Source of the DNA: Lepraria neglecta
Lineage: Eukaryota; Ascomycota; Lecanoromycetes; Lecanorales; Stereocaulaceae
Reading direction: 5' to 3'
NCBI GenBank assembly: GCA_033220425.1
Contig: CM065651.1
Location: forward strand, 1,426,001 to 1,490,000
Length of the DNA stretch: 64,000 nucleotides
Positions 10,733 through 63,400 of the stretch are shown in pieces. The notes under the pieces are model-generated. The model made no database searches and was not told where the DNA came from. It was given only the letters and a program-made list of their open reading frames with translations. Positions within the stretch are counted from its first letter, which is position 1, and each line of letters starts with the position of its first letter. The position numbers and the translations under genes are program-made.

Positions 10733-13303
10733 TCAATCGATACACCACTGTTGCTCCTCTGAAACCCTTTCTGTCAAGCATCCATACTCGCCAGCGTAGA
10801 TTGATGCAATGAGCTGATCGAGAAAATTTGTGCTATCTTCCTGAGAGCCATAGTTGGCTTTTGCCAACGTCTCTTGAACTTCCTGGCTTCTTGCAATGCT
10901 ATGCATCTCGAATTCCAGGGCCTGAAAAGCACTCCTCCAAGCTGGCGCCGCCGAATTGACCTCATCTTGATCGAACTCTGCAAGCTGCCGAGCTGGCAAG
11001 TTGTCAGAGAGATGCCGAACCAATTGATACGCCATCTCACGTAATTCTTGTCCGAAGCGGGATTGAAGTCCGATTGTAACATGGAGTTCGGAACGAGCAT
11101 ACTTGGTGTTCTGCTGCTCCTTCACCAGCGACACAATGAGACCAAGGTTAGACTGCCGCATTCCTTTGTCATCGAGGAACTGCCAGGCATGTGTGATCCA
11201 CAGGTCGGGTTTCTCTAAGTTGATACCGTCTCGTAACAAAGCGCGCAGGGTCTTGTCGGAGAGAAAACTGTCATTTTCGATGGGCAAGGCCCGAGAAAGT
11301 ATGTACCATGACCCGTCCTCACCCCTCAAAGATATCAGATCTTGGCTCCTGGGGTCGATTATATTCCAAGGATTCGGAGGCAAACCTTTTCGTTGTGAGG
11401 CAATGATAATCCTGAAGCCAGGAAGCCGGACCAGGAGACCATTTGGAGTCGGGAGACCCCGACCTGCGTCGCCATATGTTGTTTCTAGCAACATGTTTCT
11501 GGGGCTTCTGTTCAGCATAGTAGCCGGAGCCCATCGAAATCCTGACTCCTTCAGCCTAGGACACACTCGAAACAGTATATCACTTGGTATACCTCGCGCT
11601 GCAGAAGGCATCAACGACCACATGCGATGGATTCGGGACTCTTCAGGCCCGTCGATTATCTTGGACACGTCAAGGCCCAGCAGAGTCCCGATGACTAAAG
11701 GCTCGTCAAATTCAACACTGACAGCTCGACCCTGCAGAGCATCGTCAATGGCCCTGATGCCGACGCCTAAATTGTTTGGACCTTTCTGGAAGAAAAGCCC
11801 AAAGCTAAATATCCCGCTGAACGTGTATGACGCTATGCCCCTTCGACTAACACTCGAGTTCATACTTCTCAGGGCATTTTGCTCTAGAACACGGCTGTTA
11901 ACTGCTTTATCTTCGAATTGGAACCAAAGTCTCTGTCCCACGCGGGCTAAAACCCCTTCCTGCAGCGTCCATAGACGGCTCATCCAGCCACATGTGAGTA
12001 CTCGTGAGCACAGCTCTTCGTGGTCGAAGCTCTCAGTACTGTAGAGCCGTAAGGATGAATCCAATACGAGGACGTACGAAGCCATTTCATAGGTTCGTCG
12101 CATTCGCGACAAAGCCAAATCCTTGGCCTCTTTTGATTGTACAGGGCAGCATAGAGTGTCACACCAAAACAACAAATCAGCTACGGGCTGACCTGCTGCG
12201 GTATTTAATTTTGTGGTGAGGCTTTTAAGAAAGGACAATTGACAACGAGGTAAAGCGTTGCGGCGAGCATTACCCAGACCATCAGCCCACACATGAGATA
12301 GAGCCACATACTGGGAAGCACCATCTGATGAAACCACATCAATGGAGATCTCGTCAAGGTTTTGGCTCTCTTTGAGGCGTAAAAGAGGGAATGACCCGGT
12401 CTTCAGTATGTCAAATACGGAGTCGCTATCGACCAATAATTCTTCACACTTGCAGTCTTGCCTGGTGTGTCGTGTCTGATAGCTGCTCACATTGGTGTGA
12501 TTGACAAGGCATCGCTGCTCGTCACAAAATTGGTGAGTTCCGTCAGAGCCTGGCTGATTGAGGCTTGCAAGGAAGTGCAATGTTTGTAAATAATTATCGC
12601 CAGGAACTAGCATCCTTGCTATCTGGCTTATGCACCATCCTGCTTCTAGAAACCGCGGTCTCCAATAAGCAGCATCAATGTGCCTGCCCCAATTGAGCGG
12701 ACATTTGTTCTCTCGGGCAAAATCAATGGCAAATGCCTTATTCGCAGAAAACGTTAGAATCTCTCCTAGCGAAGCAAGTGATAATCTCATCACTGGATCG
12801 AAATCCGAAGGAATGGCGCCCAGAACAGCAAAGGTCAGGCGCAAGCACTCTGCGATGTGATCGTAGCTTGGCAGGGATTTCATGGTCTCAGACTGAACCT
12901 GGGCCACCCACTGGTCAAGTACATGAACAAGCGAGGATGTTGTAAGCGATTTGTGCTGCTCATCGACGTCCTTGCTGAATCGAGCAAAGTCCTGAGGCCT
13001 GAAGTTTGGCCCCAACAGCTCATAGATCAAGCCGAAAAAGAGCCACGTCTGCAACAAGGGCTCGACTTCGTGCTTTGGCATTGCGTGGACCTTCTCGTGT
13101 TGCAGATATGGCAAACGGCCCGGAGTAATATCCCCTGCAGACAGTGCAGGCAACATGCCACTTCTCGTGGGATAGTCTAGGAAGGGTCCATAGTCGTAGT
13201 CTCTTTGGCAAAGGAGGGGGACAGCGGTGCTGTCCTTCCGCATAGCTTGCTTGGATATAGGAAGATGCTCCATGGCTGGCACCCCAGGAATCAGATTAAT
13301 CAC
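10733..13303 (-). CDS. Large HET-domain-like protein
   Basis: One exon, 856 aa. A diverged HET domain lies in the middle (about residues 325-465). The block YVALSHVWADGLGN replaces the usual LSYxWG, FWCDTLCCPV replaces the WxDxxCI block, RMRRTYEMASYVLVLD is the MxxIYxxAxxVLVWL equivalent, and CGWMSRLWTLQEGVLA matches the R-x-W-T-x-QE helix. The first 300 residues form a separate alpha-helical region with a Cys-rich patch before the domain (CDEQRCLVNHTN, QDCKCEE), a layout known from large fungal HET-type proteins. No signal peptide or membrane segment is seen. The gene is unbroken, unlike the HET gene at 6673. A role in self/non-self recognition follows from the family only. The start at 13303 is the first in-frame Met; the Met ten codons later is an alternative. 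Confidence 0.75.
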   Translation of the reverse strand: MINLIPGVPAMEHLPISKQAMRKDSTAVPLLCQRDYDYGPFLDYPTRSGMLPALSAGDITPGRLPYLQHEKVHAMPKHEVEPLLQTWLFFGLIYELLGPNFRPQDFARFSKDVDEQHKSLTTSSLVHVLDQWVAQVQSETMKSLPSYDHIAECLRLTFAVLGAIPSDFDPVMRLSLASLGEILTFSANKAFAIDFARENKCPLNWGRHIDAAYWRPRFLEAGWCISQIARMLVPGDNYLQTLHFLASLNQPGSDGTHQFCDEQRCLVNHTNVSSYQTRHTRQDCKCEELLVDSDSVFDILKTGSFPLLRLKESQNLDEISIDVVSSDGASQYVALSHVWADGLGNARRNALPRCQLSFLKSLTTKLNTAAGQPVADLLFWCDTLCCPVQSKEAKDLALSRMRRTYEMASYVLVLDSSLRLYSTESFDHEELCSRVLTCGWMSRLWTLQEGVLARVGQRLWFQFEDKAVNSRVLEQNALRSMNSSVSRRGIASYTFSGIFSFGLFFQKGPNNLGVGIRAIDDALQGRAVSVEFDEPLVIGTLLGLDVSKIIDGPEESRIHRMWSLMPSAARGIPSDILFRVCPRLKESGFRWAPATMLNRSPRNMLLETTYGDAGRGLPTPNGLLVRLPGFRIIIASQRKGLPPNPWNIIDPRSQDLISLRGEDGSWYILSRALPIENDSFLSDKTLRALLRDGINLEKPDLWITHAWQFLDDKGMRQSNLGLIVSLVKEQQNTKYARSELHVTIGLQSRFGQELREMAYQLVRHLSDNLPARQLAEFDQDEVNSAAPAWRSAFQALEFEMHSIARSQEVQETLAKANYGSQEDSTNFLDQLIASIYAGEYGCLTERVSEEQQWCID

Positions 13304-13523
13304 ACCACTAAGCTTTGGGGCTTTGAAATCTGCCTAAAGAATTCAATGACATGATAGTAGTCTATTGGATGTGTTGCTTCACTCGAATAGGGGACTTCCG
13401 GAGAAAGCTTTCGTCTGACGTTGAAATCGCGCTGTCGCCAAACGCGTCTCGGCAGCGGCGCTAGCCAACATCTGTTTAGGTGACTATGCAACCTACATCA
13501 AACATACTAAAGCTTCAGTAAAT

Positions 13524-30452: not shown

Positions 30453-30625
30453 TGATACGGGGTTTTCCTGTATGTTCATAGTAGTAGTGTTGGTGGTAAA
30501 GATGATCATTGTTCTATGTGGAAGATGAGCTTGATATGCAAGCTCATAGGGCTGAGGCTGACTAAGCATGAGTCTTGGCAGGGTTCTGCATGAGCAAGCC
30601 TCATATGTCTGAGCGCCCTGTATCA
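30453..30625 (-). repeat. 3' LTR of the Gypsy fossil (173 bp)
   Basis: It begins TGATACGGGG and ends CCCTGTATCA, so it has TG...CA ends within a 6-bp inverted repeat (TGATAC/GTATCA). It is the little-mutated copy of the pair. Confidence 0.9.
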
Positions 30626-33600
30626 GAATGCCACAAATAGAAAAAATGCCATGGCCCCTATAGTGATAAGGGTACACGAAGGTAGCGCTACTGACGTATA
30701 CGCATGAAAAGAAAAGATGCAGGGTGCACGCATAAGAATTCCGACTTTTGCCATTACTATATCCGTCGTCCGAATCTTAAGCAATTCTGCCAGTTACTGG
30801 TAACCTTGCTTTTATATATCCGATCTCGCTGGGTAAACTAATCAGGAGGTTCCGTTATCCTTACAAGGTCGGCCGCGCTTTCGGACAGGCTTCTGAGCTA
30901 TATGCTGCTTATACTCGGCAATTAGCTCGTCCGCATTCATGTTCTTTACGTTTATCCAGCGGTCCTATTCAGATCCCCAGCCTTGCCAACGTAGTAAGTA
31001 TTTAGTAGAGATACCTCGTCCTCGTAGGACCACGCGTTTATCAAGGATTCGGTCCAGCTCCTATTCAGGCGGTATATCGTCTCGATTAGTTAGAATAGGC
31101 CCTGGTTTAGCAGGACGGGGCCGCTTAAAAGGATCCTCGGAAGGGTCTAGGCACAGCTCCAATTGGGCAATGGTAAAGATATCGTAAATCTTCTAGTCTT
31201 TAGGGATATTAAGGCGATACGCTAGGCGTCTAATTCGCTTAAAAACACGGAACGGGCCTACAGCTTATTGTCCATATTTACGACTAGTGAGCTTATTTGC
31301 GGGGATATCGTACCTATAATATAGATGTAATAAGGCCCAGTCTCCTACTTAGAGGAACTGCGGGTAGTAAGCTCGATTATACTGATATTTGGCATTTATT
31401 TGCGCGAATATAATAGCGTTACTTGCTTTAAGCCTTATAAGCTCTTTCGGGAGGAGTAGCTTATTATACCCTAGAAGGTCCAGAGTATCGTTAATATTAA
31501 AACTATAAGCGATCTTATTTAGGGAGCAACCAAGAGGTATAGAAATAGAGTTATTATACTGAAACTGAATAGTAGAGAGTATCTCTGGCTATACCTTAGG
31601 CTTCTGTAAGTTTATAATCTAAAATCGAATAGCGATTTCGATAGTCTAATTAGTTCGCTCACTTAACCTATCCGTCTAAGGGTAATAAGCGGTGGAGTAT
31701 AAAAGTCTTACTCTAAGCTTCTTGAATAATACCTTCTATAGAGCGCTAAGGAACTTATAATCTCGGTCTAAGATAATGGCTTTAGGGAGGCCCCAATCGA
31801 TCTTATATAAGCGTTATACTAGTATCTCGGCCTATTCTTCAGCGGTGTATATTATTTTACTAGGTATTAGCGTGATCTTCCGCGTATATTTGCAAGTAGC
31901 GGTTATAATATAGTTATACTCCTTTCTAGATAGCGGTAGGGCAAGAATAAAGTCGATTGATATAGTATAGAATGGAACCGGCGGAGATACGATTGGCTGA
32001 TAGGCTCTATACGGCTGATATTATATAGTCTAGTATAGCTGGCACTTAGGGCAGTGTCTTAAATATTCGCGTAGTTATCTATCTAGCTTATAGATATACT
32101 ATTGTCGGGAAATGATCTTATAGTATCTATTACGGCCGATATAACTGCTTAAATGAGCGATATTAAAAAACTCCTTTATATAGTCCCTTAGAATGTAGAG
32201 TCTCTATAGTATATACCCGTTTGTGGACGTAGTGTCGTTAATTCGCTAAAATAGTCTATTAGTCCCCCGAAAAAACGGAAGTTTTGCGGTATCCTCGCTA
32301 GTAGCGTCGTTATTATTGAGAACCTCTAAGATATAAACCTAAAAGGGGTCGGTAGCGTATATCTATAAAAGGTTCGCCTTTAGCTCGGTACTTATTTTAA
32401 CTAGCGTAGAGACGATATAAATATATACCTATAAGGTATCTAGCTCGCCTTCTAAATAGTCTACTTCTATATTATTAGGCCGAAGTCTTAATAATATATC
32501 AGGTACTATATACTAGATACCTGGCTTATAACGTAACTCTAAGTTACGAAAGTATTATATATAGTCCGAGGCACGAATAAGACGAAGATTTAGCTTTATA
32601 GTAGATAAAGTAGTTAATAACGTTTACTTTATAATCTATAAGGCCGTACTATAGTCGGTATAGATAATCGTCTTAGTAGAGGACTCTGCTATATATCGAA
32701 CTTTGCTCAGGACCTAAATAATACCGGCAAGTTCCAATTCGGTAGGCTAATAGCGTATCTCGGCGTCCTTGAGCAGCCGGCTAAGGAAGAGAACCGGCTT
32801 AATTTAAGAAACCGTGGGATAAGTAGTCTTTAACTCCCCTTTTAGGTGGTAGACTATAGCTCTAAAGCCATATACTTTACTAGCGTCGAGATCTATATAT
32901 AAGTCTGCGGTATTATCGAAATAGTATAAGAACGAAAGCCTAGAGAGAAGCTTCTATAGGGTTTCAAAGGCTACTATTTCTTTATAAGTAGGCTTTTTAA
33001 ATAGCGTCTTCTTTATAAAATCCTAGTGTTCTTATCCCGTATATAGAGCTTTACCAAGTAGTATAGTCTTCTGCTCTACTAAGGGTTTGGATATCGCTAC
33101 ATAGTTAGGGATGTAGTTACGCAGCCATCTAGTTATCCCGATATAGGTCTCGAGTATAGATAAGGACTGAGGGAACGATAGCTTGGCTATTACTTGAAGC
33201 TTTTCTTCTGATATCGATAGTCCTAGGGAATTAACCTTTTAACCTAATAAGGTAACGGAGGGGTAGCCTAGGAATACCTTCTTCGAGTTAATAGATATAT
33301 AGTATTTTAAGAAGAGGCCGAAGATTTAGCGTAGGTATTATATATATTCTTCTAGTATAGCTGAATAAATAACGACGTTATCTATATAAGCTTATATAAA
33401 AGAACGGTATAGTCGGAGTACTCTATCGATCTATCGTTGGATATAGACTAGTAAGTTCTTATATCCTATAACTGCAATATTAAATATCTCCTAGCCTCGA
33501 TAGGTAATAACTATTAGCTTATATCGGTCCTTAGGGTAGATACGCCATTAGTAAAAGAAGCTTACGTAGTCGACTACGGTAATATAGTTATATCCTTTTA

Positions 33601-36600
33601 CTGCACTAATAAGCTTAGTCTATAAGGGCAAGGGATATATATCAACTTGGGAGATTATATTCAGTCCCCGAATATCGATAACCGCGCGGCCTTTGCGAGT
33701 GCTGTTAGCTTTAGTAGTCTAGACCACGAAGATAGGATAGCTGAAAGGCGTAGCCTCATTAGTCTAGTCTATACGGCCCTAGTTATAAAGCTTATCGAAT
33801 ATCTTATTAATAATCTTCTTCGCTTTATTACTAAGGGGATATACTCAGGCTATCTTTAGTGCTTTATCCTCCTAGTCGGACCGTAAGGGTATTCTTATCT
33901 ACTCGTTCTAGGGCACTTCGGCGAAGCCTCCTTCTGTCTAGAGCTCCGAGAACTTATTAGCTACAGTAGCTAGCTCAGGGACGTCCCTATAGGTAGTAAC
34001 GCCATTAGGCAAGACTTTATCTTCGGCGCTAGACGATATCTCTACTATAGGCTGGCCGTTTAAGTTACTAGGGATATACAGCGTATCCTTATCTATAGGT
34101 TCGCAAGCGGTAGAGGTAAATATAGCGCTAGCAGAGGAATCGGCTAGCTTCTTCTAGATAGTATAAATCTAGGTATTATAATACTCTTTACGAGGATAAC
34201 GTATTATAAGTTCGGTAATATCTTCCTATCTACTAGTAATAGGAAAGTAGCCGTTATGGTCCGATTCATGAAGCTCCCCTAGACGTATATTTCGATGAAC
34301 ACGTATAGTATACTCTATATCGTTCTTGACTAGTACTAAGATAAGTTCGCTATTAGTAATACCTGCGTATATAGAGAGCTTGGTATCTTCTGGCTTGAAG
34401 AAGAAGTCTCGGTCTAGCAAGTCTAGATAATAGATAGTAATATTGGCTATAGAATGCGGCGGTAGCGTAGTTCCAGTCTTAGTACAGATGACTCGCTTAA
34501 TAAGGGGCCCTTTAGCGAAGACTTTAATAGGAATATCTACCTTATAGCTAGAGATATAAGCTATCTTTTTGGAAGCGAGGAGATTAATCCCTTCGGGATA
34601 CATAATATCTACTCCTAATAGAACTTTGGTATCTAGGCCTTCTACGAGATAAAGCTCGCGCGGTACGGTCCTTATAGTAATAGGCTTACCTTATTTATCG
34701 ACGCCGTCGAAGAATAGAGAGGTAATAACATAGTCTACTATTTAATGCTTAACGCCGCCCAGTCCTAAGACTTCGGCAGGAGTAGCCATTTTCCGAATAG
34801 CGATATCAGAGATGGTACTAGTAATAAATTATCGATCGGCTAGAGTTATTCCGTATCTAGAATCTATATAGATCTTTATCTCTTAGGCCTCTAGCGATAT
34901 CTTAAGACTAACGCGGTAATAGCGATAATTGCGGAAGGCTTAGCCGATGCTAATATTAGTAGCTAAGTCTACGTTTAATTCAATAATAGTACGTTCCCTA
35001 GAAGGGTCTTCTTAGACGTACGCTTCCGTATACTTCTAAGGGGTTTACTTAGGTTAGATCACGTCCTTTTACTTGGCTATAGCTTTAGATTCAGCTTACT
35101 TAGATAATACGTATATTACCGATCTTCCTAGATAGGCCTTCTTTGTATAGTTTCTTCCTTACCTATAGTTCCCTAAATATATATATAGCTTGTTTTTTAA
35201 CACGAAGGTCTATTCGTATACTTCGTATATAAATAGATTAGGCTTATTAGTAACCGAAGGGGTAGCGAAATAGCCGTAAGACTCGTCTAGATTATCGTAT
35301 ATAGATCCGTAGTATAGGTCCTCTCCCTTGTAGGTATAATTAGAGTCTATTTATAGTTAGTTATCCTGCTTAGTAGCCTCTTTCGGTTAGTCCGAGCCTT
35401 CTTTCTTCTTAGTCTATCCTTTCTACCTATAGTAAGTAGCTAGCTAAGGTAAGCGAGGCGGGAAACGCTAATTGGCAGAGTTATATACAGGACTACGGTT
35501 GTTAGTACGCGGCTGAAAGCCATCGTTTAGACGGTTTAGGAACCCCTAATATAGTTTCTATAAAGGAGCTATCGTTCTAGGTAGGAGATTTGGACGTAGA
35601 GGATAGCCGAATAGGCGTGAGTATTACTAGTTCGCATTATTTCGCTGTTAATATAATTAGCTCGGAATACTTAGAGGTAGTTACTAGAAAGTATTACTAG
35701 AGACGCCTATCTAAGGCTGGATAGTATTATCTTATAGGTTATATAGATAGTAATTAAAGCGATACGTTATAGGCTGGTAGGGATATTGCCGGGGTCGAAA
35801 ATTCAATTCTAGTCCCTTAGATATTTATAGGCTTCAGGTTAGGAGGGGGATATACGCAGTATATAAGTTACTCCCAAATATCCTTCCTCTCGTTAAGGAT
35901 ATTAATAAAACTATCTAGCGTAGTTTCTCTGCCGGGTTCTTATAGGTCCTATCTAAGATCTAGGTCTAAAGTATTATAGATAGTTAGGACCTATAGATAA
36001 GGATTATTAATCTTAGTAGCTTTTACTATATTAATAAGGGTAGCTATAAAGATATCTACCGACTCTCCCTTTCGAAATTCCTAGAAGCTAAAATAGGCAG
36101 ACTGGCATTCCCGAACTACCTCAACTATACGTATCTTGAATTTATTAATAAGGACCTCCTTTATCTCCTAGGTTAAAGATCTATAGTATAATATTCTCTA
36201 GTCCTTGGTTAGTAGAGAGGTGAACTAATACTAAGCGCTACCACGGTAGTAAGAATTTAGGACTACTTTAACTTCGTTCTCTCCCTATTAGAATACTATA
36301 ATTTTAACACAGTTAATAAATTCGTAGATATTTTGATAGATTACCGTCTTGTCCTTGTCTCTAGAGGTATCTATAGTATTATCAAGGTTAAAATAGCTAA
36401 TATCTTCAGGCTTAATCTTGCGTATCACCTCTAATTTATTAGCTAGGGGTAGCGTTTAAGAGGATCCTTATCTACCGGAAGATTCGGTTTCCTTTTCTTT
36501 TTAGTTACTAGTAGATCTAGTAGACCTAGTAAGCTTATCTATCTTAGCTAGCATTACGGTTATTATAGCCTCTAGATTATTAAGCCGCTTAGACGTATCT

Positions 36601-37350
36601 CTAGGAGGATTATCTCGGTCCTTATTACTATAGGAACTTATATTAGTATTAGTAGGCTTCTTTGCCTATAGTAGAGGCGGAGGCTTAATATTTAGCCGCT
36701 AACGTAGTTCCTTAGTCTCCTTTCTAAAGGCTATAATTATCGGTATTAGTAGGGCAGTATTAACTACCTAACGAGACTAAATTTTTTACTAACGGCTCTT
36801 AGCAGGGTCTAAGGGTAGTTACTTATTAGCTTAATTTCCTTGCCGGGTAAATGATAAAGGGTTAAGACGCGCTTCAGGGGGAGGAAAAGGATAATCCTAC
36901 AATATAATCCTGATATAAGCCTGCCTGATATCCGAAGGAACGTCCTTTTCAAAGCCTGCCTCGCAGAATTCCTACAGGTAGAAGGTAGTTATAACTATAT
37001 TATAGCTAAGGTAGTAATCTAGTTTAAAGGATAGTAATAAGTAATGAATAGGAGTTATAGCGGAAGTAATTAAATAGAAGTAGGACGGGTGTTATAAGAG
37101 ATATCTACCTAGATATATTAAATATAAAAAGATAATAAAGGAAAGTAATATAGCTTGCTAACGTGTAGAGCAAGCTCTAGGGAGTACTAGTAGTAGCTAG
37201 TCTACTCGAATGGTCTATTGAAAGGGTTGTAGCGTTGCTTCTTCTACTGAATGGTAATAATTTCAGCGTATTAAGTAAAAGAGGTACTAAGTATAGCTGG
37301 TTAGATCTTGTAGCGTCTGAATTAGTAGAGAGATGGTACTAATAGCTGTA

Positions 37351-37369
37351 GCCTCGCCCGTTGCTACTA
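37351..37369 (-). other. tRNA primer-binding site of the Gypsy fossil
   Basis: Read on the minus strand just inside the 5' LTR, the segment GTAGCAACGGGCGAGG is complementary to what looks like a tRNA acceptor 3' end (CCTCGCCCGTTGCTAC). This is the expected place for a primer-binding site. The tRNA species was not identified. Confidence 0.55.
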
Positions 37370-37372
37370 TTA

Positions 37373-37545
37373 TAATACGGGGTTTTCCTATATATTTATA
37401 ATAGTAGTATTAGTACTAAAGATAATCATTGTTCTATATAGAAGATGAGCTTGATATGCAAGCTTATAGGGCTGAGGCTGACTAAGCATGAGTCTTAGCA
37501 GGGTTCTACATGAGCAAGCCTTATATATCTAAGCGCCCTATATTA
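37373..37545 (-). repeat. 5' LTR of the Gypsy fossil (173 bp)
   Basis: It aligns without gaps to 30,453-30,625. About 20 positions differ, and all but one are G-to-A or C-to-T relative to the left copy. It is followed by the second GTTAT target duplication. Confidence 0.9.
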
Positions 37546-38197
37546 GTTATACTCCTCTATACAATGAAGTTCAATTAAGGTAGTCCTATATATATACTAC
37601 TCGTAGGCCCACGTATATAGATATATATATATATAGTATCCTTGAGTTTCAAATATATAGTACCGCTATATTACTCCCGCGCTAAGGCATACTTCGTGCT
37701 TTTGCTCCCCCTCTACTCTCCTATACTCCTTTATACTCCTCTTTACTCCCTCGCTACTCTTCTATACTTACTCTCTACTCCCTTAATACTCTTATACTCC
37801 TCCTTAGCCATTTCCTACTTTCTCGCTACTCGCTCTAGCTATTATATTCTTATAAGTGTAAACAAGAGTATCTATTTAGCTACGCTTTTAAATACTATTA
37901 TATAGAGTAAATATCTACTAATTCGCCGCTGCCTACTAACGCTCTATTTAGTTTATATATAATAGAACTAAATTATATTCTAGTATACTCTAAATCTAAA
38001 CGATAACTAGAAATTCTAAATATACTTTATATAGATCTTATCTTATTCGCTACTAGGATATCCCGAAAATATCCCGTACTATTAGATAATCCTACCAATA
38101 TCCTATACCGTAGGATATCCTATTGAGATCCTATACCTTCTACTAATAGTATAGGATTTCAGACCTTAATACTATACTATACCTCGGGATAGGTAAG
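37546..38197 (+). other. AT-rich spacer between two element fossils
   Basis: It starts with the Gypsy target duplication. It is dominated by TA-rich runs (TATATA near 37620) and a degenerate CT-rich repeat of the type TACTCCTCTATACTCC at 37715-37810. No coding signal survives; the 87-codon frame at 37642 is an artefact of this simple composition. Confidence 0.5.
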
Positions 38198-38370
38198 TCG
38201 CTATAGTAGGACTATAGGTTAGTATGTCTCATAATCAGATGCGGTTTTAGCTATACGCCATGACTATAGGCTATAGCGAGAGATCCGTGCTTCCTGAGAG
38301 TACTATTTGTATAAGTATCCTACTAGCAGTTGGCTCTTTAGTCGAGTATATCTCTTTTAGAGCTATAGCA
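38198..38370 (+). repeat. A1 repeat of the Ngaro/PAT-like element (173 bp)
   Basis: It begins TCGCTATAGTAGGAC and ends GAGCTATAGCA. It aligns gap-free with A2, with about 14 differences, nearly all of which leave A1 less RIP-mutated. Confidence 0.9.
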
Positions 38371-41300
38371 TTTCTTTTTATAGCAATTAAGCCTATATAT
38401 ATATTAGTCCATCTATCCTTTTATCCTATCTATACTTATATTCTTCCCCTCTCTTTCTAAGTATAAATATCTTAGTATTACCTAGTAATAGCCGTCGCTA
38501 TATATAAATTAGCTACCTCTAAGAAAGCCTCCAAGAAAGCCTCTAAGACGGCCTCTAAAACCTCCTCTAAGAACTATAAATAAGCTAAAACAGCTACTCG
38601 AAGGGATACTATACCCCCCCGAATTATAGGTATCTACTACCTCTTCGAGAACTATTAGCCTAAGCCTTATCAACGAAATATCTCCTCCTAGTTACCGTAA
38701 TTAAATTCGCGAGTTAAAATACCGCCTAGCGGCGCTAAAGGACTAGCGCGATTACTAGGATCGCTATCAAGTCTATAAGTTATATAGTCGCCGTCGCCGT
38801 CATCGTTATTACTATTTACCTATTTCTAGTATAGACTTAGAGGAAGAGGATGGCCTAATAGTCTCTTTTAGGTATACCGAAGGTAAGAAACCCTTTCTTA
38901 GTCTTTATAAGCGCTATTATACCGTTAATATTAAGTATTTTAAGTAAATCTTCTTTAGAATATTTAAAACGGAATACCTTATAAAGCTAGCCTATAACTA
39001 TACTAATTATATAGATAGCGATATAATCTAGGAGACTAACGGGTTGGTATACCTCCTATAGTATTTCGAGGTATATAGCCAGGCCGTTTATTACTATACG
39101 TATTCTATAGTAAATATACGGTTATAGATAGCCCTTTCGGACTACCGCCTTCGCCTTGCGAAGCTATATATATACTATAAATTTGACTCTATCCGCGTAT
39201 ACTATTACGTATTTATTACTATACGCATCCTGAGTAGCTAGGATAATCTAGTAGCCTAGTCGATCGACGATTGACGCTACTTAGACCTTTTAGTCCGAAG
39301 GATATCCGTATAGGGTAATACTAGGTTATACGTAGGTAGTAGCGCCTTAAAATCATCCTCTTCAGGCCTATTCACGTATAGATCGTTTAATAGCGGCTAC
39401 TATCTACGCGACCGCTATAGGTATCTTTATATCTATTCTATATATTAGTAAAATTACCTAGCGAATACGTGCCCAAGGGCTAACCCGACCTTGAATAATA
39501 CTAACTTGATACTACTAGTAAATCGAATTTCTAAGTCGGAATAACTCCTAGAGTACCCGTAGGTGCCTATATCGCTACTATACGTAGTAGAAGGTTTTCT
39601 ATACTCACTCGTCGACCTATCCGATCTAGATCTACCCTATTAAGGCCTATTACGCGTTAATAGTTAGTGTAAATAGTTAAAGAATCACCTCGATCGAACC
39701 TTCGCCAAGACCCTAGCGGCTATTCTTCGGAAGGGGGCAAAAATCGGGTATAGAGGTATAGACCTTTAATACCTTAGTCAAAACTACTAATTAGTACGTA
39801 TAGTACTAGATATATTAACTGCGGACCTTTAAAAACAGCTTTAGTATAACTAGTTAACTTAAGGTAGACTATTAAACGGAGCCTTAGTACGTCTATTCGC
39901 TACTAGGATTAGTTCCGAAGTATAATAGAGGTTAGAGACGTATTTATAACCTCTTATTTCTATACGATAGCTTAGTTAATAACGGTATACCTTACGATTA
40001 GGGCGCTCTAGAATATATAACGTACGATAACGCCGTGGATACACTGCTATAATAAGGTCTATAGGCTTAATTCGTTAAGTAAGACCTGAAAGACGCCTTT
40101 CGTTATATTCTAGTAGCTATATTAGACTAGTAGCTACTAGGTTTCTACTATAATAGTTTCTACTGGAAAGAACGCTATCTACCCTTTGGTTTACGTATAG
40201 TACCGTTCCTCTTTAACCTGTTTACGAAGGCGGTTAACTAGATTATAACTATACTATTACTATAGGCTATAGTATTATACTATTTAGACGACTTCTTCGC
40301 TATTCTAGCACTATAAGCTAATACTATCGTATATAGCTATTAATTCGATTAAGTATATAACGAATTAGGCCTATTAGTTAACTATTCGAAGGATACGATA
40401 GGTATAAAAGCCGACTTTATAGGAATTGAATTTAATAGTATCCTTATATAGATACGACTCCCTTCGAATAAGCTAGATAGGGTAAGAATTATAGCGCAAG
40501 GCGTCCTTAAAAGGCCTATAATCCTATATTCGGAGCTCGAGTTAGTAGTCGGTTTCCTATTATTTACTACTAAAATTGTAGTTCTAGGAAGGGCCTTCTT
40601 AAGGTGACTTTTTAACGTAATTCGAAGGCTAGTAGCTATCCTATATATCACCGCAGCTATAAAGGCTAATCTACTATAGTAGTATACCTTCTTAAAGGAC
40701 TAGAATGGCCTTAAACTACTACGTTATATCGTTAGTCGACTATCTTAGCATATATAGACTAATGCCTCGGGGAGGCTTGGTATAGGGGGCTACATTCTTA
40801 ATTACCTAGCCTATTTATACTCGGTCTAGGACGTCTTTAGTATACCGATTACTATACGCTATTATTATAAAGATATATAATTTAAAGAAATAAAGGCTAT
40901 TCTTTACGCGATTCAGCTATAGTTAGAATAACTCCGGGGATCTAAATTAACCATTTATTGCGATAATAATACCTGTATCTATAGGCTACAAAAATCCTCG
41001 ATCCGTGGACTAGCTATAGCCCTACTAAGGGATATAGCTATACTTATAGCTAGATATAATATCTACTTAATTCCGGAATAGATCCCAATAGGGGCTAACC
41101 AACTGGCCGATAACCTCTTGCGATTCCGGTATCGAAAAATCGCTGATAGATACCCTTAGCTAGGTTACCTAGCTATATCTCCGCCGAGTCAGGGCGGGAC
41201 CTACTATAATCTTGGTATAGTTAGACCGTATTGCTATAAGAAGCCGCTCGACTCCTATAGTAGGGGTTAGTAATGAAAACCCGAAAAACGTATACTATAC

Positions 41301-42256
41301 TAACGTAGTTATATATTATCTACTATATACTTAGAGGGATTATACCTCCCTTCCCAGTGATAGTAAACTTATTAGCCGGTTAGATAGTAGATCTTAGTAT
41401 AAAACGGGTTAAGGCGAAGATAGTTAAAGGCTACTTGATAGGCGTTAGATTAGCGTATATAGATATAGGCTATAGGGGCCTTATAGTATTTTATAACCTA
41501 TAATTAGAATATATAATAGCGGGTATATAACGCCTATAGGGCGAGGCTAGGATAAAAGAAAGACGTTCTATTACTAAGGATCTACTCCTATAAATCCTCT
41601 CTTATTTTAACTAGTATAATAAGACTAGTTTAATATTATATACGGCCTTTTATCTTATATTCGCTATATTCCTCTATATAGAGGAGTTTACCTATACCGC
41701 AAAAGATTATAATAATTACGAATTTAGCTAGTAGTTCCTAACTCGTCGCTCAGTAAGGCTATACGAGAACTATCTAGAGCTTACCCTCCTAGTATTAAAA
41801 ATGGACCCTTTCAGGCAGGGTATTACCCTTACTATCGTAGCTTCCGGCGATAGAGTATATATAGTTAAGGCGTTACGCTATTTATTCAAGTAGAAGACTA
41901 TACTAAATAGTCCTCTCTTCTAGCTAGGAGGCTCTATATTTATAAAGGAGATTACTACAAGTTACCTTCGTTAAGTACTTATATTACTCAGGGTAGAAGG
42001 TTATTATTTAGGATACTCCTTCTATAGGGGGGCCGCTATCTCTATATAAGAGTTAGGCCTTAGTAATGAAGAAATCTAGCTACTAGGGCGATAGAAGTCG
42101 GACTCCTATTATCTATATATAGTTATTTATTCTAAGCGAATACTTATAGTATTACGTCGGTACTAGTAGCGTTAGTACTGGCGATACTCGCTAGGAGCTA
42201 CCCTACGAGGCCTTCCTCGGAAACCCTCTACGAGGGCGTTATTTAGGTATTATTTG

Positions 42257-42386
42257 GGAGTTTTCTAGCGCTAGGGCACCTATTGTAGCCTTTCTAGGCC
42301 TGCTAGCCCTGGCGTTAGACCGCCCAAGTATCTATTTATATATCCACTTGTGCCGGTATATATAGCTTTAGGAGTGAGAATACTAA
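42257..42386 (+). repeat. B1 repeat of the Ngaro/PAT-like element (130 bp)
   Basis: It begins GGAGTTTTCTAGCGCTAGGG and ends GTGAGAATACTAA directly against A2. About eight differences from B2, all transitions. Confidence 0.9.
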
Positions 42387-42559
42387 TCGCTATAGTAGGA
42401 CTATAGATTAGTATATCTTATAATTAGATACGGTTTTAGCTATATACTATAACTATAGGCTATAGCGAGAGATCCGTGCTTCCTGAGAGTACTATTTATA
42501 TAAGTATCCTATCAGTAGTTAGCTCTTTAGTCGAGTATATCTCTTTTAGAGCTATAGCA
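42387..42559 (+). repeat. A2 repeat of the Ngaro/PAT-like element (173 bp)
   Basis: It is the same length as A1 and joined without a gap to B1. An 80-bp spacer (42560-42639) separates it from B2. Confidence 0.9.
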
Positions 42560-42639
42560 GTTCTTTCCCGCCTACTCGTACCCTATATATAGCCTATATA
42601 TAGCCTATCTACACTCTAGGTCTATATCGTCTAGGTATA

Positions 42640-42769
42640 GGAGTTTTCTAGCGCTAGGGCACCTGTTGTAGCCTTTCTAGGCCTGCTAGCCCTGGCATTA
42701 GACCGTCTAAGCATCTATTTATATATCTACTTATACCGGTATATATAGCTTTAGGAGTGAGAATACTAA
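42640..42769 (+). repeat. B2 repeat of the Ngaro/PAT-like element (130 bp)
   Basis: Same length as B1; it marks the right end of the element. The next base begins an unrelated Gypsy fragment. Confidence 0.9.
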
Positions 42770-44060
42770 AGAGCCAATATCCTATACTATCCTATATCTT
42801 TCCGGGCTATAATAACTAAGATAAGCGTTAAAAGTATTAATACCGTGCCCTACTATCTCTAGAGTATTTTTAGAAATTCTCTAAGGATAGAGACCTTAAA
42901 GAGGAGGGTAGTAGTAATAATACTATATTAGATAAACTAATTAACGCGATAGCTAATAAAGACTTACCTCTATATATAAGGGTAGTACTAGTAAATAAGG
43001 AAGATAACGACTATAGGCGTATCTATAATACCCTCGCGAAGGATCCGTCTTAGATATTCGAGATAGTTAATCTATATTATTACTCTAGTTATAATAATAT
43101 ACTCTTCTATAAGGATCGTCTTTAGGTTCTAGTAATAGCTAAGCTCTATACGGATCTAATCAAGGAAATCTATAACTAACCCGTATACGGCTATCCTAGT
43201 AGAAATAGGATACTTAAGTTAGTAAAGAGATAGTTCTACTGGCGTGGTATAAAAGATAAGATTACTCGCTATATCCGTAATTACTATATCTGCTAATAAA
43301 TTAAAGCCCCTCGAGACTAATATAATAGGCTACTATAGGCTTTACCGGTACCGGAGTAACGCTAGCAAAATATCTCTATAGACTTTATTACTAGACTTCT
43401 CGTCTCGAAAGGGTATAATACTATATATACTATCGTGGATCGGCTTTCTAAAGAGTACTACTATACTCTATATATTATAACTAATCAAGGCATATCTATA
43501 GAAGCTATAGCCGATATCCTAATAAGATATATCTTCCGCTCGTATAGTCTTCTAGAGTCGATTATCTCCGATTAAGGGCTATAGTTTATATTATTGATAT
43601 AGAAGGTACTATATTAGCGACTAAAGATTAACGTTAAGCTATCTACGATATTCTATATCGCGCTTTCCCAAAAGATTATATCATTAGCGTTATAGCTAGT
43701 TTTGCGCTATTAGTAGGCCGTATAGCGATTAGGGTCTATATCCTATATCGATTACGGACCGAGAAATTAGCCAAATTAGTAACTCGAGGTTGCCGATAGT
43801 AGTATCTATAACCTTAAATTACTACGCTAGGCGCCTATAATATTAGTATTAAAAGTTGCTTTTGTAGACTAACGCTACTATTACGCATTTGTTCTAGAAT
43901 ACGAAATATATACGCTTAGGTAGTATATTAATAATATTAGTAGATAAGAAGTCATCCGAGTCGGATAGTTCGAATATATCCTCTACTATAGTAGGTATAT
44001 TCGAGTTAGACATCTTATCTAGAATTAACCTATAGGTAGTATTATCCGAGCTAGGCGATC
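42770..44060 (+). mobile_element. Ty3/Gypsy integrase fragment (fossil)
   Basis: It starts at the right end of the Ngaro/PAT-like element. On the plus strand an integrase zinc-binding region (PVYGYPSRNRILKLVKR, about 43,170-43,230) precedes the catalytic core region (NISIDFITRLLVSKGYNTIY, about 43,370-43,430; IVDRLSKEYYYTLY after it). A degenerate tail runs to about 44,060. No LTR, reverse transcriptase or target duplication belonging to it is seen, so it is a truncated piece. It is broken many times in the RIP pattern. Confidence 0.7.
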
Positions 44061-44355: not shown

Positions 44356-44937
44356 AAAAGTTGAATACGCTACGCACTTCTTCGCAGTAATGCCCCGCGC
44401 CATATACGCCATATGATATCGAGATGATTTCATATATTTTGGAGTTAATCATTAGCTTGCTTGCGCATCAAGAATTTTTAGAATCGGCCTATTTACGCAA
44501 TAGTTATAAGCAAAAGAAGCGTTTTCGCTATATTTTGCTTGCGTACTATAACTTCTTCGCAGGACTTCCCCGCGCCACATACATCATATAATATCGAGAT
44601 GATTTCATAAGTTTTAGAACCAAGTATACGCTTTCCAACACCGTCAAAAATTTCAAAATCAGTCTACTTACGCAATAGTTATAAGCAAAAGAAGCGTTTT
44701 CACTATGTTTTACAGGCAGTGCGAGCTCAGTAGTAAATGCCAAGCATTGAGCTTGGCGCCTCCGGACCCTGGAATATCAAAAGTTGAATACGCACCGCAA
44801 CTTCTTCGCAGTAATGCCCCGCGCCACATATATCATATGATATCGAGATAATCTTATCAGTTTTGGAACCAAGCATACGCTTTCCAATACCGTCGAAATT
44901 TTCAAAATCGGTCTATTTGCGCAAAATTTATAAGCAA
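44356..44937 (+). repeat. Three degenerate copies of a roughly 160-200-bp repeat
   Basis: Copies lie at about 44,356-44,520, 44,548-44,724 and 44,779-44,937. Shared landmarks are the opening AAAAGTTGAATACGC (copies 1 and 3), CTTCTTCGCAGTAATGCCCC, GATATCGAGATGATTTCAT, ACGCTTTCCAA and ACGCAATAGTTATAAGCAAA. Copies 1 and 2 extend with AAGAAGCGTTTTC; copy 3 breaks off within the shared ATAAGCAA and passes straight into the minisatellite. No coding signal is seen. Confidence 0.8.
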
Positions 44938-45590
44938 TATTCGCACATGGCGATATGGCGCCGGATTGCCTATTCGCACATGGCGATATAGCGATCATGG
45001 CACCGGATGGCTCATTCGCACATGGCGATATGGCGACGGATTGCCTATTCGCACATGGCGATATGGCATAGGATTGCCCATTCGGCACATGGCGATATGG
45101 CACTGGATTGCCTATTCGCACTGTTGGCTATATGGCACCGGATTGCCTATTCGCATATGGCAATATGGCGATGTATTGCCTATTCGCACATGGCGATATG
45201 GCACCGGGTGGCTCATTCGCACATGGCGATATGGCGACGGATTGCCTATTCGCACATGGCGAAATGGCGCTGGATTACCTATTCTGCACATGGCGATATG
45301 GCGCTGGGTTGCCTGTTCGCACATGGAAATATGGCACCGGATTGCCTATTCGCACATGGCGATATGGCGGTAGATTGCCTATTCGCACAGTTGGCGATAT
45401 GGCACCGGATTGCCTATTCGCACATGGCGATATGGCGGCAGGTTGGCTATTCGCACATGGAGATATGGCACCGGATTGCTCTATTCGCACATGGCGATAT
45501 GGTGGTAGATTGCCTATTCGCACATGGAGATATGGCACCGGATTGCTCATTCGTATATGGCGATATGGCGGTATGCTGCCTATTCGTTCC
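44938..45590 (+). repeat. 33-bp minisatellite array, about 20 units
   Basis: The basic unit can be written TATTCGCACATGGCGATATG plus GCACCGGATTGCC (33 bp). About 19-20 units are present, most 33 bp, with a few of 34-43 bp. Unit variants differ mainly at the GCACC/GCGAC/GCGGT positions and at TTGCC/TGGCTC. CpA and TpG are abundant in every unit, in sharp contrast to the flanks, so the array has escaped RIP or grew after it. Because 33 is a multiple of three and the unit lacks stops in several frames, long open frames appear on both strands (repeating peptides of the type LPIRTWRYGTG); these are not taken as genes. The array ends with unique sequence containing two CCGGGGGC motifs. Confidence 0.92.
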
Positions 45591-60400: not shown

Positions 60401-63400
60401 TATTACGATATATTATCTATATAGCTAGTTCTCTGCAGAACCAGGGCGCCTCGCCCTTGTCCTTAGGCTTAGTCGCTACTAGTTCCTCTATATTCTCTAT
60501 TTTCTCGTTATTTATATTCGCTATCTATCTATTACCGGCTAAATTTAACTTCTTTAAACCGAGAAATTAGATATAAGTATCAAAATTTGCTAAGATAATA
60601 GCGTATTCTTCTCTCCTTATAGGATCGTATTCGCCTTCTTCCGCTATAAAGCCTAGCGGACCTAGACTATTATTTTGGATTACTTATAGTCTCTTTAAGA
60701 AGTCCTCCTAAGTCTTAATATTATTACTATCTATAATAGGACGACTAATAGAGAGGTTTAGCGTTAATATCCTAGGATACCTATAAATATTGAAAATTAG
60801 CGCTTCTATTTCTAAAATATATAAGCTAGAGAATCTAGTCCCTAATATATAGATAAGTAAGATGAAGCGCTAATAGTATTGCGAGAAAACCAAAATTATA
60901 TATTCTATAGGAGACCCGCTAGTACTCTTTATAATATATACTATTATTCCTTATCCTTATTAGGCCCTATAATAAAGATAATAGATCGCTTATCTAATTT
61001 GGCGCTAAGTATACTACCCCTATCGCTAAATGGATTCAGAAAGTTTAGTAGCTCCTGTAGAGTATTAATAGGTAGCTATATATTGTGTGCTCCGGCCCCG
61101 TTCCCTATACGAATATAACCCCCGCTAGTGCGAGGGGTTGAAAAGAATATTGATAAATATAGATAAACTAAGATTATAAGCTCGATATTTGGTTATTACT
61201 TAGTTATAGCCTAGAATAGAATATTTAGGCTAACTAATAGGCCTATCTTCCTTCTCGAGTATATAGTAGGGAATCTTCTATAGAACGTTATTATAGTTTA
61301 CCGCATCGATTTTAGGGGATTAAGTATATATTCTACCCTTCCTATCGCAGTCGGGGAATAAAAGAGGTTAGAACTTATATATACCCGATCTATCTGCGGC
61401 TTCAGGGTTACTTCTAGTATCCGGTCGACTCTCGATAATTATCAAGTTACCGCTATATTCGTCTTGTTGTAGATATAGACTAACCCTTGTAAGACTAAGG
61501 TCTAGTATTACTTATAGTAGTCGACGGTAAATTCTAACTATCTCTAGCTCCTTAGAAGTAGAATCGAATTTGTTTTTATAAGAACTTCTACTCCCTTACT
61601 CGTCCCTAATAGAGAGATTATTAATAGGAAATCGGTAGTATTAGTAGTAGGACTATAGGTTATCTTCTTCTCTATACTAGTTTAATAGAAGAAATATATA
61701 GCCTTTATAGATCTTGAAAACAAGGTTTTATTCGGGTAAGGCGTTAAAGAGGTCTCCTATCTATAGAAGATAGCTCCCTTACTCGGGAGAGAAAGCTACT
61801 ATATATATAGTCTATAAAAAAGGTGGATCTCTAGAGAGAAAGTAGAGGTTCTCCTGAGTATATCTAACCTTAATACCGGGACGGAGCGAAGGGCCTTTAA
61901 TTAGATCCCTACTCTATTCTTTACGCAATATATACCGAATATAGTTAGGTATATCCTCTCCTAGATATACGGTAATAAAATAGCTTAGCTAATTATTAGC
62001 TATAAGAAATGATAAGGTATTAGCTTTATATTAGAGGATTTTAAGTATAAAGCGGGAATCGGTAAAGGCTAGCGAAAGGGCCGCTTCTTAACTAGCTAAT
62101 TAGTAGATAAGACCTTTAACATCGATAACTAATTCGGTCTTAGCGGCTTTATAAACTTCTAGGATATAGATATTTAACCCTTGAATATAGTAAAGAATAC
62201 CGGCTTCGTATAAGATTAAGGTGCCGTACCTAAGCTTTACGACTAAGTAAGGCCTAGCGAGAGCGAATACTACTCGCCTAGAAGTAAAACGGCGAATAGC
62301 CTCTAAATAGCTAATAACTTTACTTCTAGCGCTTTTACCCTTGTAGGAATATAGAATATAAGCCTAATCGTTCGGTTAGTAATCGAGATACCCGCTAAAT
62401 TATAGAAAAATACTTCGACTATAATTTTGCAGATTTCCTCTCTATCTAGAAGACCGAGCGATTTCTTATAAGTAAGCTTATACTTGATATAATCTTCTAG
62501 AGTAAGATAGTAAAGAATCTAATATTAAACTTCCGGCGGCAAATTTAATAATAGTACCGCCAAATTGAATAAGGGTACTGCTATAGTATCTCGGTATTTA
62601 TAATAATTAGAAGTTTAAAGGAATTCGATGTTTAAAAGAGCGCGGGGCTATAATATTACGGGAAATATTGGCTTAGTCTCCTGTATATATACCCTACTTA
62701 TTCGTAGACTCGCCACGTTAACACGCTAACTGACCAAATTAGTACCTGCCCCACTTATTTCGTATACTTACTGCGTTAGTAATAGCTGAACCCGTAGAGG
62801 CTCCCTAATTATAGCCTAATTTAAGGTATAGGGCGTAAGGCAATAAGCGGGCAGAGGGGCTAAGTATAGTCTACTCGGGCTGGAACTTATACCGCTTTAT
62901 CTGCCTTAATTAGCGTGATAGGTATATAAATAGGGCTAACGGAATATATAGTACGCTGGAATAATATATGGCTGCCCAAAGGTGTACTTAGAAATATGCC
63001 AATCCTCTGAAATAGTCTACTCCTACAAGGGGTGAAAACGTTACTATTCCCTACTCCTTGGCGATTGAGGCCGGCTAAGGCAAAATATATACTATAATAA
63101 GTAATGTAATAGAGAGTAAAGCGGTCCTTGGGAGCATGAAGAGGCCTGGATAATACCTAGCGTGTTCTATATAGTACGTTAGTCGATCTAAAGAAGTCGA
63201 AGGTCTTTTAGGTAGGAGTGGGGGAAAGAATATCTAAGGCGATTACGAAGATACTATACTAGAGATCTTCCTTGGACTTTAGCGGCGTGACTAGTACTAT
63301 ATACGAGCCTACTATATAGGAATACAAGCGTATTGCTCGGCCGCAGCTAATAATTGCTGAATATTGCTTGCCGCTTATATAATAATTGCTAATACCTTTG

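What the first reader, a model, noticed from the sequence alone, without database searches (positions are those of the whole stretch)
38198..42769. Split-direct-repeat tyrosine-recombinase retroelement (Ngaro/PAT layout) in an ascomycete
Two repeat families of exactly equal copy lengths (A: 173 bp twice; B: 130 bp twice) are arranged A1 - coding - B1-A2-B2, with B1 touching A2 base to base. Reverse transcriptase, RNase H and a tyrosine-recombinase-like end lie between them in the order expected for DIRS-order elements. This arrangement is neither LTR nor inverted repeat and is not often reported from ascomycetes. An 80-bp spacer between A2 and B2 is an extra feature to compare with known elements.
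Basis: partly seen in the sequence, partly recalled or inferred. Interest (0 to 1): 0.75.

Follow-up and report, generated by a model that had tools for sequence, protein, structure and literature searches.

The report
Mutated Ngaro-type jumping gene, fungus
This is a dead, heavily mutated copy of a known but uncommon kind of jumping gene (a Ngaro-type retrotransposon, which inserts itself with a recombinase rather than the usual integrase) in what looks like a filamentous ascomycete fungus, where few such elements have been described.

Summary
Two direct-repeat families lie in the order A1 - coding - B1A2 - spacer - B2: A1 38198-38377, A2 42387-42566 (180 nt, 92%); B1 42257-42386, B2 42640-42769 (130 nt, 94%). 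B1 abuts A2; the spacer is 73 nt. Reverse transcriptase is present (Pfam RVT_1, E 3.7e-6, just under the cut-off). Four plain library searches missed the tyrosine recombinase. A mutation-aware comparison with 12 viral-contig tyrosine recombinases found it: 36.6 bits, against at most 19.7 in 500 codon shuffles and 22.9 in 576 other stretches. RNase H rests on motifs. No room is left for a methyltransferase between RNase H and recombinase, which favours Ngaro over PAT. The element is dead: stops throughout and RIP-type change (A2 has lost 9 of A1's 12 CpA/TpG sites but 4 of 58 other C/G sites). Ngaro is already reported from ascomycetes: a truncated copy in Neosartorya fischeri (PMC3783388) and a complete family in Zymoseptoria tritici (PMC4502367). 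So this is a new member of a known kind. No RT tree or genome copy count could be made.

The parts
38198..38377 (+). repeat A1, left end of the element
   Evidence: 92% identical to A2 over 180 nt without gaps
38759..39640 (+). gag-like reading frame (assignment by position and base composition only; limits chosen by eye)
   Evidence: 12 stops in this frame against 27 and 33 in the other two forward frames, and lowest second-position GC in this frame; no Pfam match
39850..40440 (+). reverse transcriptase; Pfam match covers 40032-40427, YLDD box near 40281, FIGIEF near 40416; outer limits approximate
   Evidence: RVT_1 E 3.7e-6, 27.3 bits against a cut-off of 29.6; motif places
40761..41130 (+). 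RNase H-like part (motifs NASGRLGIGG, KEIKAIL, IYCDNN, NQLADNLLR)
   Evidence: motif places; phrog_531 RNase H E 0.49; bacterial-type RNase HI profile gave no signal
41276..42118 (+). tyrosine recombinase, in another frame than RT/RNase H; profile match 41276-42100, candidate catalytic Tyr codon 42116-42118
   Evidence: 36.6 bits against at most 19.7 in 500 codon shuffles and at most 22.9 in 576 other stretches; residue places
42257..42386 (+). repeat B1
   Evidence: 94% identical to B2 over 130 nt
42377..42418 (.). imperfect inverted repeat straddling the B1|A2 junction (possible recombinase-binding arms)
   Evidence: score 24, reached at 36 of about 33,000 centres in the mutated region, in about five places
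42387..42566 (+). repeat A2, begins at the base after B1
42567..42639 (.). 73-nt spacer between A2 and B2
   Evidence: no second copy in the window
42640..42769 (+). repeat B2, right end of the element

Best explanation
A dead Ngaro-type tyrosine-recombinase retrotransposon (order DIRS) with all four of its repeats, inserted in an AT-rich, repeat-rich stretch of what looks like a filamentous ascomycete genome. When active, its RNA would have been copied by its RT/RNase H. The internal B1A2 block, which has the same sequence as the joined ends B2-A1, would serve as template to restore the ends and give a circle. The recombinase would then insert the circle at a short target by recombination at the B-A junction, without a DDE integrase. 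Shown here: repeat order, RT, YR, stops, RIP-type mutation. Inferred from the model for this class (partly recalled, partly PMC6681497 passages): the circle, end restoration and YR insertion. The host's repeat-induced point mutation then killed it, which implies at least one other copy in that genome at the time (inference).
For: A1-coding-B1A2-B2 order with B1 touching A2. RT match. Recombinase match: best stretch of all six frames of the window at the three non-zero mutation settings tried (0.2, 0.4, 0.6), ending at 41923, before the HxxR motif that was used to collect the profile; 36.6 bits, 0 of 500 shuffles. The three seed proteins of that profile all match Pfam Phage_integrase. Candidate catalytic sites in the expected order: R read as Y 41675, K 41798, H read as Y 42014, R read as Y 42023, W read as stop 42092, Y 42116. 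RIP indices TA/AT 1.72 and (CA+TG)/(AC+GT) 0.25 against 0.64-0.74 and 1.24-1.44 over the first 28 kb. Between copies, 22 of 23 differences are transitions, 16 of them in CpA/TpG context; 9 of 12 CpA/TpG sites of A1 but 4 of 58 other C/G sites are changed in A2. A HET-domain gene in the window fits a filamentous ascomycete (the host range of HET is recalled).
Against: No Pfam, PHROGs, NCBIfam or PDB match for the recombinase under plain reading (with stops read as Q or W only a spurious DUF3262 at E 6.7). Plain HMMER with my own profile gave E 19 there and a better, insignificant E 0.38 elsewhere. RNase H is not shown beyond motifs. The RT match is just under Pfam's cut-off, and the RT part has no PDB or NCBIfam match. 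No empty site, no second copy, no clear target duplication. The structure predictions were too poor to use.
Confidence: 0.86

Rival explanations
1. A PAT-type element (DIRS group with split direct repeats), which differs from Ngaro by a methyltransferase and by RT ancestry.
For: PAT elements share the A1-B1-A2-B2 repeats (PMC4157794 passages).
Against: Only about 150 bp separate the last RNase H motif (41106-41130) from the start of the recombinase match (41276), and about 140 bp lie between the candidate last tyrosine and B1, so no methyltransferase fits at its usual place. Muszewska 2013 limits fungal DIRS to early-branching fungi and finds only Ngaro in Dikarya.
Confidence: 0.08
2. A VIPER-like or otherwise new split-direct-repeat lineage of tyrosine-recombinase retroelements.
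For: VIPER has the same repeat order (PMC6681497 passages).
Against: VIPER is described from kinetoplastids, and its proteins are listed as gag, YR, RT/RH (that this is also their order on the DNA is my reading and recall), whereas here YR follows RT/RNase H.
Confidence: 0.03
3. A composite: a Gypsy-type retroelement next to a Crypton-type recombinase gene, with unrelated repeats that happen to be arranged this way.
For: A Gypsy-type integrase zinc-binding domain lies just downstream of B2, at 43141-43308 (Integrase_H2C2 E 5.1e-8).
Against: Four repeat copies in the Ngaro order with base-to-base B1-A2 contact enclose RT and YR and no other recognised domain in the forward frames. The integrase domain lies outside B2.
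Confidence: 0.03

Closest known systems
Ngaro retrotransposons of Basidiomycota (groups 1-4 of Muszewska et al. 2013, PMC3783388; parts 1-3 of 5 of the text read, and passages)
   Same: A-pol-B-A-B repeats; RT, RNase H and YR without methyltransferase; YR in the same frame as RT-RNase H or shifted
   Different: apparently ascomycete host, heavy RIP; group within Ngaro not determinable here
Truncated Ngaro of Neosartorya fischeri (PMC3783388, same reading)
   Same: ascomycete host, lies in a cluster of mobile elements, RT-RNase H-YR
   Different: that copy lacks terminal repeats; this one has all four
Ngaro family (code RYN) of Zymoseptoria tritici (PMC4502367; passages only)
   Same: [quoted passage not shown] the table row reads 1, 23, 0.06 for the first genome and zeros for the other three
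   Different: sequence not available here, so relatedness not tested
Ngaro-like DIRS-53_XT of Xenopus tropicalis (PMC9210276; passages only)
   Same: A1 / B1-A2-B2 repeats of similar size (236 and 152 bp against 180 and 130 here)
   Different: carries an extra SGNH hydrolase gene; animal host; repeats 100% identical and copies potentially active

Membership tests
Ngaro | split direct repeats A1 - genes - B1A2 - B2, internal pair downstream of YR | tested here: met
Ngaro | reverse transcriptase | tested here: met
   RVT_1 E 3.7e-6, slightly below the curated cut-off
Ngaro | RNase H after RT | tested here: inconclusive
   motifs and phrog_531 E 0.49; bacterial-type RNase HI profile gave 11.3 bits, reached by 108 of 500 shuffles, at setting 0.2, and 10.6 bits, reached by 126 of 500, at 0.4
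Ngaro | tyrosine recombinase in place of DDE integrase | tested here: met
   mutation-aware profile score 36.6 bits, 0 of 500 shuffles, but no match in plain library searches. No integrase match between A1 and B2 in the forward frames, which alone is weak as YR was missed too
Ngaro | no methyltransferase domain | tested here: met
   by room only: about 150 bp between the last RNase H motif and the YR match; absence of a Pfam match is weak because YR was missed as well
Ngaro | RT/RNase H groups with Ngaro references on a tree | not testable with these tools
   no DIRS, Ngaro or PAT reference proteins were reached; RT found no relative in viral contigs or phages, YR none in viral contigs or plasmids
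PAT | methyltransferase after RNase H | tested here: not met
   no room between RNase H motifs and YR
DIRS1-like | inverted terminal repeats and internal complementary region | tested here: not met
   repeats are direct; no inverted pair of 30 nt or more in 36-45 kb
Ty3/Gypsy LTR element | one pair of terminal direct repeats plus DDE integrase inside | tested here: not met
   four-copy split repeats; the only integrase domain found lies outside, downstream of B2
Crypton | tyrosine recombinase without reverse transcriptase | tested here: not met
   RT present in the same unit

The most novel reading that the evidence does not exclude
The window holds one of very few Ngaro elements with all four repeats in an ascomycete, from a lineage of its own that was active recently enough to leave 92-94% identical repeats despite RIP. 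Its B-A junction, and so also the circle junction, would carry a roughly 40-bp inverted repeat that acts as the recombinase-binding site.
Probability: 0.25. Interest if true: 0.45.

Novelty: new member of a known kind. Interest (0 to 1): 0.3.

Why it matters
Ngaro elements are found mostly in Basidiomycota among fungi and are rarely reported in Ascomycota (PMC3783388, PMC4502367). A copy with all four repeats helps ask whether ascomycetes inherited them or acquired them sideways, and whether RIP is one reason they are so rarely recognised: here no plain protein search that I ran finds the recombinase. The mutation-aware profile scoring used here may recover such genes in other RIP-damaged genomes.

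Tried and rejected
Plain searches of the recombinase part in Pfam, PHROGs, NCBIfam and PDB: nothing usable; the RT part in PDB and NCBIfam: nothing. Structure prediction of the YR and RT/RNase H parts with stops read as residues: mean pLDDT 39 and 36, useless, so no fold search was made. Relatives by protein: RT in viral contigs and phages, YR in viral contigs and plasmids, none. Degenerate patterns for DIRS-type RT and YR in viral contigs: chance matches or none. A genome-contig scan was wasted: the spacing in my pattern was two bases short and so out of frame, and none of its 5 hits carries the motif in an open frame. The corrected pattern in viral contigs gave 7 stretches, 4 with the motif in frame, which led to the profile. 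RNase H profile from bacterial-type RNase HI: no signal. Rfam and tRNA scans of the window, and a PDB search with one host protein: nothing. Considered and rejected: the equal lengths of the repeat copies as a special feature (it only means no indels); the finding's 80-bp spacer as a novelty (73 nt; no reference sequences to compare, and the passages seen give no distance).

Full report
Observation. Repeat search finds A as a pair at 38198-38377 and 42387-42566 (180 nt, 92%) and B as a pair at 42257-42386 and 42640-42769 (130 nt, 94%), no gaps, B1 touching A2. The spacer between A2 and B2 is 73 nt and the whole unit 4572 bp. The finding's 173 nt and 80 nt come from stopping A at its last single mismatch. 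The repeats score 258 and 199 bits; the best direct repeat in 30 first-order Markov imitations of the 31-64 kb part scored 40.1 bits. No further full copy is in the window; no genome is held.

Mutation. The unit lies in an AT-rich stretch (about 31-64 kb) with strong RIP signature: inside the unit TA/AT is 1.72 and (CA+TG)/(AC+GT) is 0.25, against 0.64-0.74 and 1.24-1.44 over the first 28 kb. Between repeat copies there are 23 differences; 22 are transitions, 19 of these with the second copy as the changed one, and 16 are in CpA/TpG context. Going from A1 to A2, 9 of 12 CpA/TpG sites but 4 of 58 other C/G sites are changed; from B1 to B2, 4 of 9 against 2 of 50. One CG in A1 reads TA in A2, so an arginine codon CGY can become TAY, which is relevant to the recombinase below. 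Stops occur in all six frames throughout.

Genes. In three successive stretches, whose limits I chose by eye from the translations, one forward frame has the fewest stops and the lowest second-position GC: 38759-39640 (frame of 38378; 12 stops against 27 and 33), 39879-41238 (shifted by one; 28 against 44 and 49), 41270-42190 (frame of 38378 again; 18 against 39 and 24). The second matches reverse transcriptase (RVT_1, E 3.7e-6, 27.3 bits against a cut-off of 29.6; 40032-40427), followed by RNase H-like motifs with a YCDNN and an NQLADNLLR, only weakly supported (phrog_531 E 0.49; no signal with a bacterial-type RNase HI profile). The RT part has no match in PDB sequences or NCBIfam.

Recombinase. 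The third stretch gave no match in Pfam, PHROGs, NCBIfam or PDB, nor with stops read as Q or W apart from a spurious DUF3262 at E 6.7. This is what one would expect if its catalytic codons are mutated. To test it, I collected tyrosine recombinases from viral contigs with a pattern for HS[FL]RRG.A...GRW (4 of 7 hit stretches carried it in frame), aligned three (all three match Pfam Phage_integrase, best E 2.1e-17), widened the set (13 loci) and built a profile from 12 (pairwise identity 27-62%). Plain HMMER with this profile gave no significant hit (best stretch of the window E 0.38, elsewhere; the stretch of interest E 19). I then scored codons against the profile while allowing C-to-T and G-to-A change. 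For 41258-42256 the score is 30.0 bits at 0.2 and 36.6 bits at 0.4; 500 codon shuffles reached at most 20.2 and 19.7. At 0.4, 576 other stretches of the mutated region reached at most 22.9, six overlapping stretches in the same frame having been left out of that count. The best stretch ends before the HxxR motif, so it does not rest on the motif by which the profile was collected. The candidate catalytic positions are: R (now TAT) 41675, K 41798, H (now TAC) 42014, R (now TAT) 42023, W (now TAG) 42092, Y 42116. The profile match itself ends at 42100, so the last tyrosine rests on motif and spacing (recalled).

Methyltransferase. From the last RNase H motif (41106-41130) to the start of the recombinase match (41276) there are about 150 bp, and about 140 bp from the last candidate tyrosine to B1, too little for the methyltransferase of DIRS/PAT elements (its usual place downstream of RT/RNase H from PMC9210276 passages; its size recalled).

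Junction. An imperfect inverted repeat (42377-42418) straddles B1|A2 (score 24; 36 of about 33,000 centres in the mutated region score as high, in about five places; the surroundings of the left end of A1 and the right end of B2 reach 16 and 12). It would be rebuilt in a circle whose ends are joined. Its centre lies about eleven bases inside A, not at the B|A border, so a role as recombinase site is only a suggestion. The flanks show no clear target duplication: the longest word shared by the 20 bases on each side is 5 nt and not at the borders.

Surroundings. Downstream of B2 lies a Gypsy-type integrase zinc-binding domain (Integrase_H2C2 E 5.1e-8, 43141-43308; seen again). On the left, six frames of 33301-38197 gave only an RVT_1 match at E 0.1 on the minus strand, so whether the unit sits inside that Gypsy element is open. 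The gene-rich part of the window carries Bmt2, HET, CENP-I and cohesin-loading-factor genes. HET fits a filamentous ascomycete (recalled); no tool named the organism.

What is known. Muszewska et al. 2013 (PMC3783388; parts 1-3 of 5 of the text, and passages) found Ngaro elements in Basidiomycota and a single truncated one, without repeats, in Neosartorya fischeri. Grandaubert et al. 2015 (PMC4502367, author name from recall; passages) report one family of a complete Ngaro in Zymoseptoria tritici. Repeat-annotation tables list Ngaro in Sporothrix (PMC9281073, passages), Hortaea (PMC7601665, passage) and, with a count of 1 in the column I take to be Z. tritici IPO323, in PMC7181583 (passages). 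The split-repeat scheme, its sharing by Ngaro, PAT and VIPER, and the model that uses the repeats in reverse transcription are in PMC4157794, PMC8547959, PMC9210276 and PMC6681497 (passages). Paper searches showed, in listings and the passages I opened, no further described complete ascomycete Ngaro; the library holds only open-licence papers, and I did not open every listed paper.

Verdict. A dead Ngaro-type element with all four repeats: a new member of a known kind, of modest interest as one of few described from ascomycetes. What remains open is the RT tree, the copy number and the exact insertion ends.

Noticed in passing
43141-43308 (+ strand): Gypsy-type integrase fragment (H2C2 zinc-binding domain) downstream of B2, in a frame with stops; no matching Gypsy part found by Pfam on the left side.
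   Followed up: partly
30455-30626 and 37375-37546: A 172-nt direct repeat, 89% identical, 6.9 kb apart; where its ends were printed the left copy looks less RIP-mutated. Possibly ends of another element; a very weak RT match (E 0.1) lies between them at about 33323-33616 on the minus strand.
   Followed up: partly
44356-45586: A tandem array of about 33-nt units beside three copies of a ~150-nt repeat; RIP indices for 44-48 kb are intermediate.
   Followed up: no
61645-61662: An 18-nt exact match to the start region of A1, outside the element; may be chance or a remnant.
   Followed up: no
10736-13333 (minus strand): HET-domain protein gene in the gene-rich part of the window (Pfam HET E 2.3e-8).
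   Followed up: no
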